Part shown: positions 468-4,697 of the stretch, piece by piece
Layout of the letters: each line of letters starts with the position of its first letter
How positions within the stretch are numbered: the first letter of the stretch is position 1
Assembly: GCA_022825595.1 (NCBI GenBank)
Contig: JAJDWM010000603.1
Span: forward strand, 1 to 33,589
Length of the DNA: 33,589 bases
Direction of reading: 5' to 3'
Source: Bryobacterales bacterium
GTDB lineage: Bacteria > Acidobacteriota > Terriglobia > Bryobacterales > UBA6623
Notes under the pieces: model-generated
What the model saw: the letters and a program-made list of their open reading frames with translations, nothing else
What the model was told of the DNA's origin: nothing
Databases searched by the model: none
Position numbers and translations under genes: made by a program

Positions 468-3356
468 TTACGGTGAACCCAACTCCCTCAGTCTCGTTAA
501 GCTCAGACGTATGTCTTTGGCGACTTCGGCAACTTCTCGTGCAACTTTGGTCTCGAGGCCGCTTTCCTGCCGCAAGGCGGTGACCAAGGGGAACAAGCGG
601 TTCACGGCTGGAGACTCCTCAACCAACGCAAGGACGCGCTTGGGTCCGAATCGGACCGTGAATGCCAATAGCCCTTCGATACTCATCGATGGGAGGACCT
701 CGAACCTTGGCAGCAGTTCGAGCATCGCAGCAAGTTCAGACGCGTAGCCGAGTTCGTTCTGGCAGGCAAAGTAGCCTTCTGCTCGAAGGAGGTGAGCAAG
801 AACGAGGCTATCAGTTGGTTTAGCAGAGAATTCCCTTAGCACCCTGCCTGCTGTGCTTATGGCGGCCTCTGATTGACCCGTTCGCAACTCCGCTTTCGCC
901 TTTTCGAGAAGTGTGTTACCCACCATTTCAAGGATCGGTGCAGACGTGCTTCCGCTGAACCGGTCGCTGAAGTCTTCAATCGCAGCGTATCCCTCCTCGA
1001 GGCGGTCCGCTCGCACTAGCGAAGTGCCCCTATTCGCGTAGGCTGGGGCCAAGAGTTCGTCCATCTCTGGTGAATCGTGCGAGGAAAACCTGCGGATCAC
1101 AGATTCGTAGGCATCCAGAGCTTCGCGGGGTCTGTCTAGGCATTCGAGCATAACTCCGCGGTTCGTGGAGGCCGCTGCCAAGTGGTTGGCAATGTCCGGT
1201 GGGGTACCATCACTTTCGAAACGCTTGAGCAGGTCTTCAAAACAAGCGAGAGCGTCTTGGAAGCGGCCACTGTCCGCCATAGCCCCTCCCTTGTGGAGAA
1301 TCGCCGTGGCTACAGGCTCAGCGACTTCCGGCACTGGGCTCGACCCGAAGCGAGCGACCACCGCATCGTATCCGGCACACGCGTCTTCAGTCCGTCCTCC
1401 CTCTTCCAGCACCTTGGCCTTCGCCAGTAGGGCCCGCGCGACAGGCTCCTGCACCTCGTCGGCATCGCTGGACCCGAATCGTTCGAACACCTGTTCAAAG
1501 ACGGCAACCGCCTCCCTTGGCCGGTTCAGTTCCGCGAGAGCCACGCCCTTGTTGTAGAGCACCTGCGACCGCTGCTTGTCGGTCGCCTCCGAATCACCCC
1601 GCTCGAAGCGATCCGAAAACGCCTCGCTGACCGAAACGATCTTCGTGTCGCGCCCTAGTTGGGCCAACACGGCAACCTTGTTGGCGAGTATCTCGGCGAT
1701 CGTCGTCGAGATCTCGGGACCGTTGAGGGCCTCGTACCGATTCAGTGCCGCATCACAGACGCCGAGCGCGTCCTCAGGGCGCCCGGAGCGGGCCAGGGCG
1801 ACCGACTTCGCGGATAGCGCGTTCGCCATAAGGCGGGAAGAGTTGGGCGTGTCCAAGTCGACAAGAAGGACTTGGACCTTTTCGCAGACGGCAATCGCCC
1901 TGTCATACTGCCCGTCCTTGAGTAGTTGAGCGGCCTTGGCCACAAGGTTGCCCGCCCTCGATTCACGGGGGTCGGCAGTCATTTTGGATGTCCCAGTGGC
2001 TTCGAGGGCCTTGGTTACCCTGGCCTTCGCATTCGAAGTTGCCCCACCAGCGCCGAGAGTCATCCCCAGTCCAGCCATTCCACCCTTGCGGCTCGTCTTG
2101 TCAGTCAGGAGTTGAAGTGCCTGCTTCATCGCTGCTAGGAGCTTCCCTTCGGCGGCTCTCGTCTTCGCAGCGATCCGCTCACGGATACCGACGAGCTCCG
2201 AGTGGGAATAGAATGCCGTCATGAAGTGGACCAATGCTTGGACCACCCGATTCATGCCCCTCCCGCGTCGTAACAGGTAGTAGATGTTGTACATGCGCTC
2301 GGCAAGGTAGTACTCCTTTCGCCGAGGGGTGCCACCCGCGTGGATGACCGCGCCCCGATCAACCAGCCGTCTCAGGATCGCGCTGCAGTGGCTGGTTCTC
2401 AGTCTCGACCTAGCCGAGACCTGCCTCGCAGTTGCGGGCTTCCAGAGCCTTGCCAGAGCCAAGTAGACACGTCGATCCTGGACGCCCAAGGCTTCGAGAT
2501 GGCTTCGGAAGTACTCAGTGTGGTCGTCGACTAGACTCAACAGATTGTCCATGAGTTCGTGGAATGACAGCCGCGAGCCAAACTCGGCGACAATCGCGAC
2601 TAGGCGGGGACTTCCTCCGGTGAGTATCTCGAGCGACCGAATCGCTTGAGTGTCCGCATCACGGTCCGAGACGCTCCTCCACAAGACAGCGCAGGACTCG
2701 GTGTCAAGGCGCTTTAACGTATGCACCTGGAATAGCTCGTAGAGTGCTCGCTCCGAGTTCTCGATCTCCTCGAATCGGCTGGTCGCGCTCCCCATCAGGA
2801 GTATTCCAGGTTCACACTGCAGGGTCTTCCGCAGTTGCCACCCGACCCCGGGATCACCAATGTCGTCGAACAGGGTGTTCAGATTCTCGACAAACAGCAC
2901 CAAGCGCTTTCCTAGGCTGTCGGCGAAGTCCAGAATCGCCGCGAGGCAGAAGTCGGCGAGGATCCGGTCGTCCGCGACGGTCTGCAGTTCCTCGTAAGTG
3001 CGCTTGAGGTCGGTATCGGTTTCAACGTGCGATGCCTGGTCGGCAAGTTGCAGAAGGCACTCAAGCCAGAATTCGCCGCAAGTGGAGACTTCGTAGATCT
3101 CTTCGGGGAACACTACAGGAAACCACGCTTCGCGCAGAGCCGCGTCCCTCCTGACTTCGGCTGCGACACGCAGCAGCAGGGTCGTCTTTCCCGAGCCCCG
3201 GGGCCCGATCACGATTGCATGGGGATTCGAGTTTCCCGTGCTCTCCTGGAGCGCTTCGACCAGAAGTGCGAACTCGCCGATCCGCACGCAGAAGGAATCC
3301 ACGAGTTCTTGGTCGGTGAGGAATCCCGGATTGTATTTCTTGATCTTGCGGTTCAT
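468..3356 (-). CDS. STAND-like P-loop NTPase with winged-helix region and C-terminal TPR array (962 aa)
   Basis: Walker A GPRGSGKTTLL; Walker B-like RLVLFVENLNTLFD; sensor-like GILLMGSATSR; wHTH-like segment ending EYYLAERMYNIYYLLRRGRG; Gly-rich linker; then multiple ~45-aa TPR-like helical repeats (e.g. LYNKGVALAELNRPREAVAVFEQVFERF, AYANRGTSLVRADRLEEGYAAIEDF) over roughly 720-1950. Confidence 0.85.
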   Translation of the reverse strand: MNRKIKKYNPGFLTDQELVDSFCVRIGEFALLVEALQESTGNSNPHAIVIGPRGSGKTTLLLRVAAEVRRDAALREAWFPVVFPEEIYEVSTCGEFWLECLLQLADQASHVETDTDLKRTYEELQTVADDRILADFCLAAILDFADSLGKRLVLFVENLNTLFDDIGDPGVGWQLRKTLQCEPGILLMGSATSRFEEIENSERALYELFQVHTLKRLDTESCAVLWRSVSDRDADTQAIRSLEILTGGSPRLVAIVAEFGSRLSFHELMDNLLSLVDDHTEYFRSHLEALGVQDRRVYLALARLWKPATARQVSARSRLRTSHCSAILRRLVDRGAVIHAGGTPRRKEYYLAERMYNIYYLLRRGRGMNRVVQALVHFMTAFYSHSELVGIRERIAAKTRAAEGKLLAAMKQALQLLTDKTSRKGGMAGLGMTLGAGGATSNAKARVTKALEATGTSKMTADPRESRAGNLVAKAAQLLKDGQYDRAIAVCEKVQVLLVDLDTPNSSRLMANALSAKSVALARSGRPEDALGVCDAALNRYEALNGPEISTTIAEILANKVAVLAQLGRDTKIVSVSEAFSDRFERGDSEATDKQRSQVLYNKGVALAELNRPREAVAVFEQVFERFGSSDADEVQEPVARALLAKAKVLEEGGRTEDACAGYDAVVARFGSSPVPEVAEPVATAILHKGGAMADSGRFQDALACFEDLLKRFESDGTPPDIANHLAAASTNRGVMLECLDRPREALDAYESVIRRFSSHDSPEMDELLAPAYANRGTSLVRADRLEEGYAAIEDFSDRFSGSTSAPILEMVGNTLLEKAKAELRTGQSEAAISTAGRVLREFSAKPTDSLVLAHLLRAEGYFACQNELGYASELAAMLELLPRFEVLPSMSIEGLLAFTVRFGPKRVLALVEESPAVNRLFPLVTALRQESGLETKVAREVAEVAKDIRLSLTRLRELGSP

Positions 3357-3376
3357 GTGGCTCTCGTTGCAGGCTC

Positions 3377-4618
3377 CTAGGTTCCGGAGAGAGGATGGAT
3401 CGGCAGGCCTTGCCTAGCGCGCTGCCAGTCTTCCAGCAGCCCCGACGTGAAACAATAGCCCTCACGGCGCTTGTCGAAGTAACCGTCCTGTTCGAGTACG
3501 TCCAGCACGAACGGGAGCGAATCTGCGGCCGGGTCATGGGCCGCATCCAAGATCCGCCTGTAGTCTTTGATCGATTGCGGTCGGAGCAGTCCTCCCCTCG
3601 CAGCACGCGCCAGCAGTTCGAGGGCGACCGTGAATCTGTTGGGGCCCAGCACAAGCTTCAGCCGATCCTCAAAGTGGTCCATGTCGATTCGACCCCTTGC
3701 CCCGAGCATGTCCTCGCGATAGGCCCTGTCAGCGTCCTCAAGGGTGGCCTCGGATCGGCGTGCGATTGTCAAGCGCCTGTGGAGAGCGTCAAAGAACTGC
3801 TGGACATGGTGGGGAATGCAGGATCTCAGGCGATCGCAGACCACGTCTCGGACCTCGCGGGGAAGGTGCACGTGGTAGGACGCCGCGAGGGCTGCCAAGC
3901 ACTCGGAAGCTGTCGACCTGCTCCAAGGCTTCAGTTCGAAATTGGAGAAGACGTTCATCGCCGCGCTCAGTCCAACCCGCCTGAGGATCGGCGCGATCCC
4001 AACGCTTCCCGACACGATGAAGCAAAGTCGGCCGCGGTGCTCTTGGGCGTTCCGCCGGAACCACGAAAGGAACTCATCCGCCGCTGCAACATCCTCGGCT
4101 TGCTGCCGGTCGGACCGTCCCTTGAGGATTCTGTTGATCAGCAGCGGCAGCTCGTCGATTGCGAGCACCACCAAGTCGCTGCCCCTTGTCAGGTCTCTCA
4201 ACAACCGATCCCCCTTCCGCTTCCAGTTGCCGACGTGGATGTCCGCCCGGAGGTGGAATCGCATCTCCTCGTACTGCCCTCCCACTTGGATGTTTCTGAA
4301 CCTTGCCAATAGAGCGCGAGGAGACTCCAAGGCCCTCCGTCGAATCGATCTCAGGGACCGAGATGCCACTGAGATCTCCACGATCGCGTCCGCAGGATCC
4401 CTTGCATCTTCGAGGTCCACGAAGCATGTCTTGATTCCAGGGCTGCCATTCAGACCCCGGAGCAGTTCGCGGACGAGGCTAGTCTTGCCCATCCGCCGCT
4501 GGGCTGTGAGCAGGGTGTGGGTCCCATCCTGGACATACTCCCGCAACGCGGCAATTTCGTCCTCGCGGTTGAAGAATCGGTCGCCGTCGACCCAATTTCC
4601 AACGGTCTTCTTAAGCAT
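3377..4618 (-). CDS. AAA / archaeal-type ATPase with C-terminal wHTH-like region (413 aa)
   Basis: N-terminus GNWVDGDRFFNREDEIAAL, Walker A AQRRMGKTSLV, Walker B LVVLAIDELPLLI, sensor CFIVSGSVGI, and C-terminal VLDVLEQDGYFDKRREGYCFTSGLLEDWQRAR typical of archaeal-ATPase (PF01637/AAA_16-like) proteins. Strong SD AGGAGG at 4623-4628. Confidence 0.85.
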   Translation of the reverse strand: MLKKTVGNWVDGDRFFNREDEIAALREYVQDGTHTLLTAQRRMGKTSLVRELLRGLNGSPGIKTCFVDLEDARDPADAIVEISVASRSLRSIRRRALESPRALLARFRNIQVGGQYEEMRFHLRADIHVGNWKRKGDRLLRDLTRGSDLVVLAIDELPLLINRILKGRSDRQQAEDVAAADEFLSWFRRNAQEHRGRLCFIVSGSVGIAPILRRVGLSAAMNVFSNFELKPWSRSTASECLAALAASYHVHLPREVRDVVCDRLRSCIPHHVQQFFDALHRRLTIARRSEATLEDADRAYREDMLGARGRIDMDHFEDRLKLVLGPNRFTVALELLARAARGGLLRPQSIKDYRRILDAAHDPAADSLPFVLDVLEQDGYFDKRREGYCFTSGLLEDWQRARQGLPIHPLSGT

Positions 4619-4653
4619 TCGTCCTCCTTAAGCCCAACTGGCTCCCAATGTTT

Positions 4654-4697
4654 TTGTTGCCAACAATTATATTGGCACAAGTCGGGGGGATCGTCAA
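4654..4697 (-). promoter_or_regulatory. Promoter plus inverted-repeat operator of the two-ATPase operon
   Basis: Minus strand: TTGACG (4692-4697), 20-nt spacer, perfect TATAAT (4666-4671). The -10 is flanked by half-sites TTGTGCCAA / TTGGCAACAA, and 4654-4666 is a perfect 13-bp odd palindrome TTGTTG-C-CAACAA. The AGGAGG SD lies downstream. Confidence 0.6.

What the first reader, a model, noticed from the sequence alone, without database searches (positions are those of the whole stretch)
468..4618. Two-gene ATPase module: AAA/archaeal-type ATPase plus STAND-like NTPase-wHTH-TPR protein
Sequence shows two adjacent minus-strand P-loop NTPases 20 bp apart, with different Walker motifs (AQRRMGKTSL and GPRGSGKTTL), wHTH-like C-terminal elements, and a long TPR array on the second. 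No housekeeping partner is in the operon. P-loop + wHTH + superstructure repeats is the established STAND architecture, used as signal sensors in bacteria (e.g. MalT, Avs). No recognisable effector domain (nuclease, TIR, protease, TM) is present in either ORF, so any output would have to come from the second NTPase, the TPR part, or an unlinked partner. A role in defence or stress sensing is inference only.
Basis: partly seen in the sequence, partly recalled or inferred. Interest (0 to 1): 0.78.

Follow-up and report, generated by a model that had tools for sequence, protein, structure and literature searches.

The report
Paired STAND ATPases with promoter array
Two neighbouring genes make a pair of ATP-driven switch proteins, one with a long, fast-changing sensor arm, that travel together through many bacterial phyla, carry their own row of short mirror-image DNA sites in front of them and sometimes head virus-defence operons, so they are probably an undescribed sensor-regulator of bacterial immunity.

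Summary
In detail: two minus-strand P-loop NTPases, A (3377-4618) and B (468-3356), 20 nt apart. A folds like archaeal STAND ATPases (PAB2304, SSO1545). B is a STAND/ORC-like NTPase, then a TrmB-like winged helix, a TPR superhelix and a conserved C-terminal cap.

The pair is a real unit: A is adjacent to B in 75 of 79 informative B-retrieved loci, 37 of 40 A-retrieved loci and 21 of 22 further loci; A and B distances correlate at r = 0.90. It is patchy (about 1-2.5% of sampled genomes) and spans many phyla.

New here: a promoter array of 9-bp palindromes (GTTGNCAAC, 15-bp period) before A, almost confined to A-B loci. Many divergent pairs carry arrays with other letters. B-only relatives keep the motif, so B is the likely binder. 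In seven loci a long gene is translationally coupled behind B; all are defence-type (Hma/DUF1156, type IIG RM, Wadjet JetA, PDC-S39). A Moraxella pair leads an Avs4/PD-Lambda-4 operon. Most copies stand alone.

Best reading: an autoregulated STAND sensor-regulator module of anti-mobile-element defence. DNA binding and defence are inferred, not shown. I found no description of the pair.

The parts
3377..4618 (-). Gene A: STAND-type ATPase with C-terminal winged helix, 413 aa
   Evidence: ORF; weak AAA_16/ATPase_2 match; model pLDDT 87, best PDB match 2qen E 1.3e-11
4478..4504 (-). A: Walker A (AQRRMGKTS, residues 39-47)
   Evidence: sequence; R42, G44, K45, T46, S47 invariant in 49 sequences
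4148..4168 (-). A: Walker B (VLAIDEL, residues 151-157)
   Evidence: sequence; D155, E156 invariant
3413..3586 (-). A: C-terminal winged-helix region, about residues 345-402
   Evidence: secondary structure of the model H347-359 H363-377 E381-384 E387-390 H393-402
468..3356 (-). Gene B: STAND/ORC-like NTPase, winged helix, TPR array and C-terminal cap, 962 aa
   Evidence: ORF; Pfam; model and best PDB match 6mfv E 2.2e-8
3183..3206 (-). B: Walker A (GPRGSGKT, residues 51-58)
   Evidence: sequence; G51, G54, G56, K57 invariant
2883..2888 (-). B: degenerate Walker B acid pair, E157-N158
   Evidence: E157 and N158 invariant in 37 sequences
2301..2489 (-). B: TrmB-like winged helix, residues 290-352, proposed DNA-binding domain
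   Evidence: Pfam TrmB 1e-5 in B and in 36 of 37 homologues; recognition-helix comparison
705..1970 (-). B: TPR array, residues 463-884, proposed sensor
   Evidence: Pfam TPR families; helix pairs in the model
480..644 (-). B: conserved C-terminal cap, residues 905-959 (PLVTALRQESGLETKVAREVAEVAKDIRLSL)
   Evidence: conserved end in homologues of very different length
4641..4679 (-). Promoter array upstream of A: TGTGCCAAT (4671-4679), GTTGGCAAC (4656-4664), ATTGGGAGC (4641-4649), exact 15-nt spacing; a weak copy of the family array
   Evidence: motif statistics over 60 promoters
4666..4671 (-). TATAAT sequence between array sites 1 and 2, possible -10
   Evidence: read from sequence; the consensus scan did not call a promoter in the window, but 37 of 60 homologous promoters have one
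4692..4697 (-). TTGACG, possible -35 (20 nt from the TATAAT, longer than usual)
   Evidence: read from sequence
4623..4628 (-). AGGAGG, likely ribosome-binding site of A
   Evidence: read from sequence

Best explanation
A and B are one module: a pair of STAND ATPases acting as an autoregulated sensor-regulator linked to defence against phages or plasmids. B is built like the regulator MalT: an NTPase switch, a winged helix that binds the palindrome array over the operon's promoter (probably repressing it), and a TPR arm that senses a cell or invader signal. A is a second STAND ATPase with an intact catalytic site that works with B, whose Walker B lacks the usual catalytic acid. On sensing, nucleotide-dependent opening or assembly of B, helped by A, would remodel the promoter complex and switch on the operon: A-B alone in most genomes, A-B plus coupled defence genes in some. 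Shown: architecture, pairing, co-evolution, the array, its near confinement to A-B loci, and coupled defence genes in a minority. Inferred: B as the binder, repression, the ligand, A's role, and that the function is defence.
For: A-B adjacency in 75 of 79, 37 of 40 and 21 of 22 informative loci; A-B distance correlation 0.90, best of 1000 permutations 0.24. B: STAND-TPR architecture with TrmB winged helix, best PDB match 6mfv. Array: at least two sites in 57 of 60 promoters, 113 spacings of exactly 15 nt; overlaps a sigma-70-like promoter in 37 of 60, 0.4 expected; in 20 genomes almost only at A-B loci. B-only loci keep the motif. Recognition helix of B differs between GTTGSCAAC and GTTGWCAAC lineages. 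Long ORFs coupled within 20 nt behind B are defence-type in all seven loci (six scanned, the seventh a near-copy); Moraxella A-B overlaps an Avs4/PD-Lambda-4 gene or lies near QatD and an anti-phage dGTPase.
Against: No binding, repression or phage test exists. In 20 further loci no coupled defence gene was seen, and most of the 80 loci have none. Three of the seven coupled genes are of one family (HmaB), so independent events are fewer. The covariation of recognition helix and site follows phylogeny. The window's own array is weak (one perfect site). No defence gene was recognised in this window. The copies that stand alone have no obvious target but themselves.
Confidence: 0.47

Rival explanations
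1. A-B is a complete NLR-like defence system of its own. B's TPR arm recognises an invader product, and A or an A-B oligomer is the effector, acting by a yet unknown route. The array only keeps expression low, and coupled defence genes are neighbours gathered in defence islands.
For: Most copies stand alone; patchy accessory distribution; fast-evolving sensor arm with variable repeat number; A is broken more often than B.
Against: No effector domain or recognisable toxic activity in A or B. Stop-start overlap with different defence genes suggests more than neighbourhood.
Confidence: 0.27
2. A-B is an addiction-like pair: A is harmful when free, B restrains it and represses the operon through the array.
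For: A interrupted with B's NTPase frame open in about 11 of 80 loci and in six A-retrieved loci (two near-copies) against one with only B broken; autoregulatory-looking array.
Against: Both genes are far larger than usual toxin-antitoxin pairs; small numbers, retrieval bias and draft bins; B-only genes exist, and A shows no toxin domain.
Confidence: 0.1
3. The pair serves symbiosis: the TPR arm of B is one of the eukaryote-like repeat proteins of sponge symbionts and senses or handles host factors.
For: Many relatives come from bins that appear to be sponge-derived (host assignment inferred); TPR proteins are reported as enriched in sponge symbionts (PMC8163846).
Against: Relatives occur on plasmids of Moraxella, Agrobacterium, Sphingobium and Segatella; no secretion signal was examined; winged helix and promoter array point inside the cell; symbiont defence genes are also reported as enriched.
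Confidence: 0.06
4. B is a MalT-type metabolic regulator with A as accessory ATPase.
For: Architecture and TrmB-like winged helix.
Against: No shared metabolic neighbour among 633 flanking ORFs; the array is almost absent elsewhere in the genomes searched; patchy presence.
Confidence: 0.05

Closest known systems
TPR-sensor STAND proteins: MalT (PMC4381067, PMC10427625), the TPR STAND of PDB 6mfv (PMC6468293), AfsR (PMC10936776)
   Same: NTPase switch with a TPR superhelix as likely sensor; 6mfv is the best structural match of B; MalT and AfsR are transcription regulators
   Different: B's DNA-binding candidate is a winged helix between NTPase and TPR; B comes with an obligate second STAND ATPase, and the only visible target is its own promoter
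Archaeal Walker-type ATPases PAB2304 (2qen) and SSO1545 (2fna)
   Same: Fold of A: P-loop ATPase plus C-terminal winged helix
   Different: Sequence identity 17-18%; A is always paired with B
Avs and other bacterial NLR-like defence STANDs
   Same: STAND NTPase and C-terminal repeat sensor
   Different: No effector domain in A or B; a winged helix and a promoter array instead
Defence-operon regulators BrxR (PMC9122601, PMC9122589), CapW (PMC9122588), CapK/CapS (PMC13373217), RptR (PMC12255303)
   Same: Regulators encoded with diverse defence operons; here A-B or B alone precedes diverse defence genes in some loci
   Different: Those described as WYL-domain or other repressors; here an ATPase pair with a TPR arm
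BREX ATPases BrxC/BrxD and iSTANDs (PMC12839542)
   Same: ORC-CDC6-like NTPase; in BrxC it is followed by a winged helix
   Different: No BREX gene set around A-B; B ends in TPRs and a cap

Membership tests
STAND NTPases | P-loop NTPase core with Walker A and B, followed by a winged helix | tested here: met
   Both motifs and models; B's Walker B is degenerate (E-N)
STAND NTPases | Superstructure-forming sensor repeats | tested here: met
   B has TPRs; A has none and would be a bare core
STAND NTPases | Inducer- and nucleotide-dependent multimerisation | not testable with these tools
   Needs purified protein
MalT family | C-terminal LuxR-type helix-turn-helix | tested here: not met
   No such match; TrmB-like winged helix at 293-346 instead
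Avs / bacterial NLR defence | N-terminal effector domain (nuclease, protease, TIR, other) | tested here: not met
   B begins directly with the NTPase and A has no effector match
Defence-operon regulators | Encoded at the head of diverse defence operons | tested here: inconclusive
   True for seven coupled loci plus Moraxella; not for the majority or the further sample
Defence-operon regulators | Binds its operon's promoter | not testable with these tools
   Array present; binding not measured
BREX | Co-occurrence with PglZ, BrxX and other BREX genes | tested here: not met
   No gene family recurs in more than five of 80 flanks
Toxin-antitoxin systems | One partner toxic alone and neutralised by the other | not testable with these tools
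   Only an indirect hint from decay of A

The most novel reading that the evidence does not exclude
A previously undescribed class of immune switch: two paired STAND ATPases with NLR-like sensor architecture but no effector, which recognise a lineage-specific palindrome array at their own promoter and act as an exchangeable control head for different bacterial defence operons, each paralogue kept apart from the others by its own array letters.
Probability: 0.33. Interest if true: 0.78.

Novelty: new variant of a known kind. Interest (0 to 1): 0.62.

Why it matters
If true, bacteria use an NLR-shaped receptor to control immune operons rather than to kill directly, which would join MalT-type regulators and NLR-type immunity in one design. 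The array makes the idea directly testable with one protein and a short DNA probe. Different arrays on paralogues within one genome would be a natural set of mutually insulated regulators. If the apparent abundance in sponge symbionts holds, some of the TPR proteins noted there may belong to such switches rather than to host contact.

Tried and rejected
A third conserved gene: none among 633 flanking ORFs. Virus origin: no relative in viral contigs or phage records. Known RNA element: no Rfam match in the window. Programmed stop or frameshift in A: breaks lie at several places and include deletions, so pseudogenes or assembly errors are likelier; TGA recoding was not pursued. Recent repeat amplification in the window's own B: none by TRF. 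A regulon in trans: away from A-B only two convincing orphan arrays were noted (L171, L176), beside genes with no evident link. A scan with the broad A alignment failed for lack of conserved stretches and was replaced by the B N-terminal alignment. Literature searches found no description of the pair; the library holds only open-licence PubMed Central papers.
Full report
OBSERVATION. A is 3377-4618 minus, 413 aa; B is 468-3356 minus, 962 aa; 20 nt separate them. A matches AAA_16, ATPase_2 and AAA_22 below Pfam's curated cut-offs, but 46 to 49 of 49 homologues match the same families. B matches AAA_16 above cut-off, ORC-CDC6-like and nSTAND_NTPase5 below it, a TrmB winged helix at 293-346, and many TPR models. 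NCBIfam and PADLOC add only weak P-loop or TPR matches. The own genome holds one A, one B and one TPR-only relative of B's C-terminal half.

STRUCTURE. Models were built from alignments of 49 A and 37 B sequences. A (pLDDT 87, pTM 0.84) is closest to the Pyrococcus Walker-type ATPase 2qen (E 1.3e-11, TM 0.65/0.75), followed by ORC/Cdc6 proteins and SSO1545, 2fna. B (pLDDT 86, pTM 0.54) shows NTPase, winged helix, a low-confidence linker at 424-459, a TPR superhelix from 463 and a helical cap; its best match is 6mfv, a STAND protein with a TPR sensor (E 2.2e-8), described in PMC6468293. A keeps a canonical D-E Walker B; B has E-N there, invariant in 37 sequences. That A hydrolyses and B mainly binds nucleotide is inference.

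THE PAIR IS ONE UNIT. In the order-level search 30 of 200 genomes had A. Re-scanned with profiles, 37 of 40 A loci have B next to A on the same strand; the other three are A fragments, one at a contig end. A genome-collection scan with the B N-terminal alignment found 291 relatives, of which 80 were kept; A or a remnant of it lies directly upstream in 75 of 79 informative ones. In 23 further loci from sampled Alpha- and Gammaproteobacteria and the window's phylum, A is adjacent in 21 of 22 informative ones; a few of these genomes overlap with the earlier set. Identity matrices of A and B over 60 loci correlate at 0.90, against at most 0.24 in 1000 permutations. No third gene is shared.

DISTRIBUTION. 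The loci used for the tree come from at least eight phyla; the tree clusters by phylum but needs 12 label changes where 7 would do, which fits some transfer between phyla, though misbinned contigs can give the same. Prevalence is low: 3 of 289 Alphaproteobacteria, 9 of 369 Gammaproteobacteria and 10 of 396 genomes of the window's phylum, each count including the centre genome. Many titles carry bin codes that fit sponge studies, for example RHO, COS, CAR and APA against the host species listed in PMC8163846. The link from code to host is my inference, and enrichment was not tested.

SENSOR ARM. Complete B proteins in the 80 loci run from about 530 to 1450 aa. In close pairs the N-terminal part is about 54-68% identical and the TPR part about 28-41%. 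About a dozen loci hold 129-nt (43-aa) or double-length tandem repeats at roughly 70-95% identity; the window's array is degenerate. The last 55 or so residues are conserved again.

PROMOTER ARRAY. Upstream of A, 57 of 60 promoters hold at least two sites like GTTGNCAAC (6 of 8 fixed positions); the mean is 3.55 sites against 0.81 in first-order Markov shuffles, and 113 neighbouring pairs are exactly 15 nt apart, the next commonest spacings having six each. Two or more exact copies of one unit, nearly always CAAC-N6-GTTG, occur in 36 of 60, 0.6 expected. A sigma-70-like -35/-10 pair is present in 37 of 60, 0.4 expected. In the window the array is weaker: one perfect site with two partial ones at exact 15-nt spacing (4641-4679). 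A search of 20 whole genomes found the double site with at most one mismatch only at A-B or former A-B loci, except one orphan; several two-mismatch matches were a GTTGWCAAC variant in front of other A-B pairs of the same genomes, one was a clear orphan, and the rest look like chance. More distant pairs show comparable arrays with other letters, such as CTAC-N6-GTAG (L068) or CTAT-N6-ATAG (Moraxella). Of 22 distant promoters 11 have two or more exact copies of one such unit at a 6-nt gap; others were judged by eye only.

WHO BINDS. B-only genes on Agrobacterium pAtCFBP7129a and Sphingobium SC-1 plasmids keep GCCAAC-N6-GTTGGC-like sites, seen by eye, without A next to them, as does L110. B's winged helix matches TrmB, a DNA-binding family, and its recognition helix reads mostly TSxCSA in GTTGSCAAC lineages and IRxVST-like in GTTGWCAAC lineages. 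This favours B, but the covariation follows phylogeny and no binding was measured. The array's position over the core promoter suggests repression.

DEFENCE LINK. Long ORFs (over 450 aa) starting within 20 nt of the end of B occur in seven loci. Six were scanned and all match PADLOC families: HmaB/DUF1156 (L084, L087, L110), type IIG REase-MTase (L142), JetA3 (L094), PDC-S39 (L137); the seventh, L101, begins with nearly the same protein as L094. Dsr2 lies 77 nt behind B in L080 and a SoFic-like protein 137 nt behind in L118. On Moraxella plasmids A-B either overlaps a PD-Lambda-4_A/Avs4 gene or lies in an island with QatD and an anti-phage dGTPase. The Sphingobium B-only gene lies beside Pycsar, AbiE, TIR and Mov34 genes. 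Against this, none of the 20 further loci examined downstream has such a gene recognisably coupled (by eye), the neighbours of the 80 loci are mixed, and no defence gene was recognised among ten large ORFs of the window. No matched random control was run.

DECAY OF A. A is interrupted or partly deleted while B's NTPase frame is open in about 11 of the 80 loci and in six A-retrieved loci, two of them near-copies, against one with B broken and A intact. This hints that A is the costlier partner, but numbers are small, retrieval is biased and draft bins carry errors.

VERDICT. A real, conserved STAND pair with a self-specific promoter array. The best-supported function is an autoregulated sensor-regulator tied to defence; a complete NLR-like defence system is the main rival. 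Known regulators of defence operons such as BrxR, CapW, CapK/CapS and RptR are analogues in role, not relatives. I found no published description of the pair in the library held.

Noticed in passing
L171:6468-6520 (G210:C1:3527467): A clear GTTGWCAAC array with no A or B within the 13 kb read: a remnant or a target in trans.
   Followed up: partly
L176:4238-4261 (G218:C261): An orphan GTTGSCAAC double site on a 5.3-kb contig without A or B.
   Followed up: partly
L111 and L128, gene A: In two different phyla A carries a stop in place of the same conserved tryptophan (LKPW / LRPW); independent decay or a hot spot.
   Followed up: no
L084, L085, L090, L093, L113, L130 and others, gene B: 129-nt tandem repeats in the TPR region, some over 90% identical between copies, suggest recent array expansion.
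   Followed up: partly
L003:1333-2376 (G000:C399): A 347-aa TPR-only protein in the window's genome resembles B's C-terminal half including the cap.
   Followed up: no
L182:6951-16375 (Moraxella osloensis pSKB0120-2): Behind A-B: a PD-Lambda-4_A/Avs4-like gene, a 1586-aa NPHP3_N-type protein and a 290-aa protein without a match.
   Followed up: partly
window:7714-12078 (+): Large Lhr-type helicase with its winged-helix domains.
   Followed up: no
window:15372-18176 (+): PSCyt1/PSCyt2/PSD1 protein, a domain set named for planctomycetes, in a genome whose nearest named relatives are Acidobacteriota.
   Followed up: no
window:19990-21492 (+): A second, unrelated TPR protein of 500 aa.
   Followed up: no
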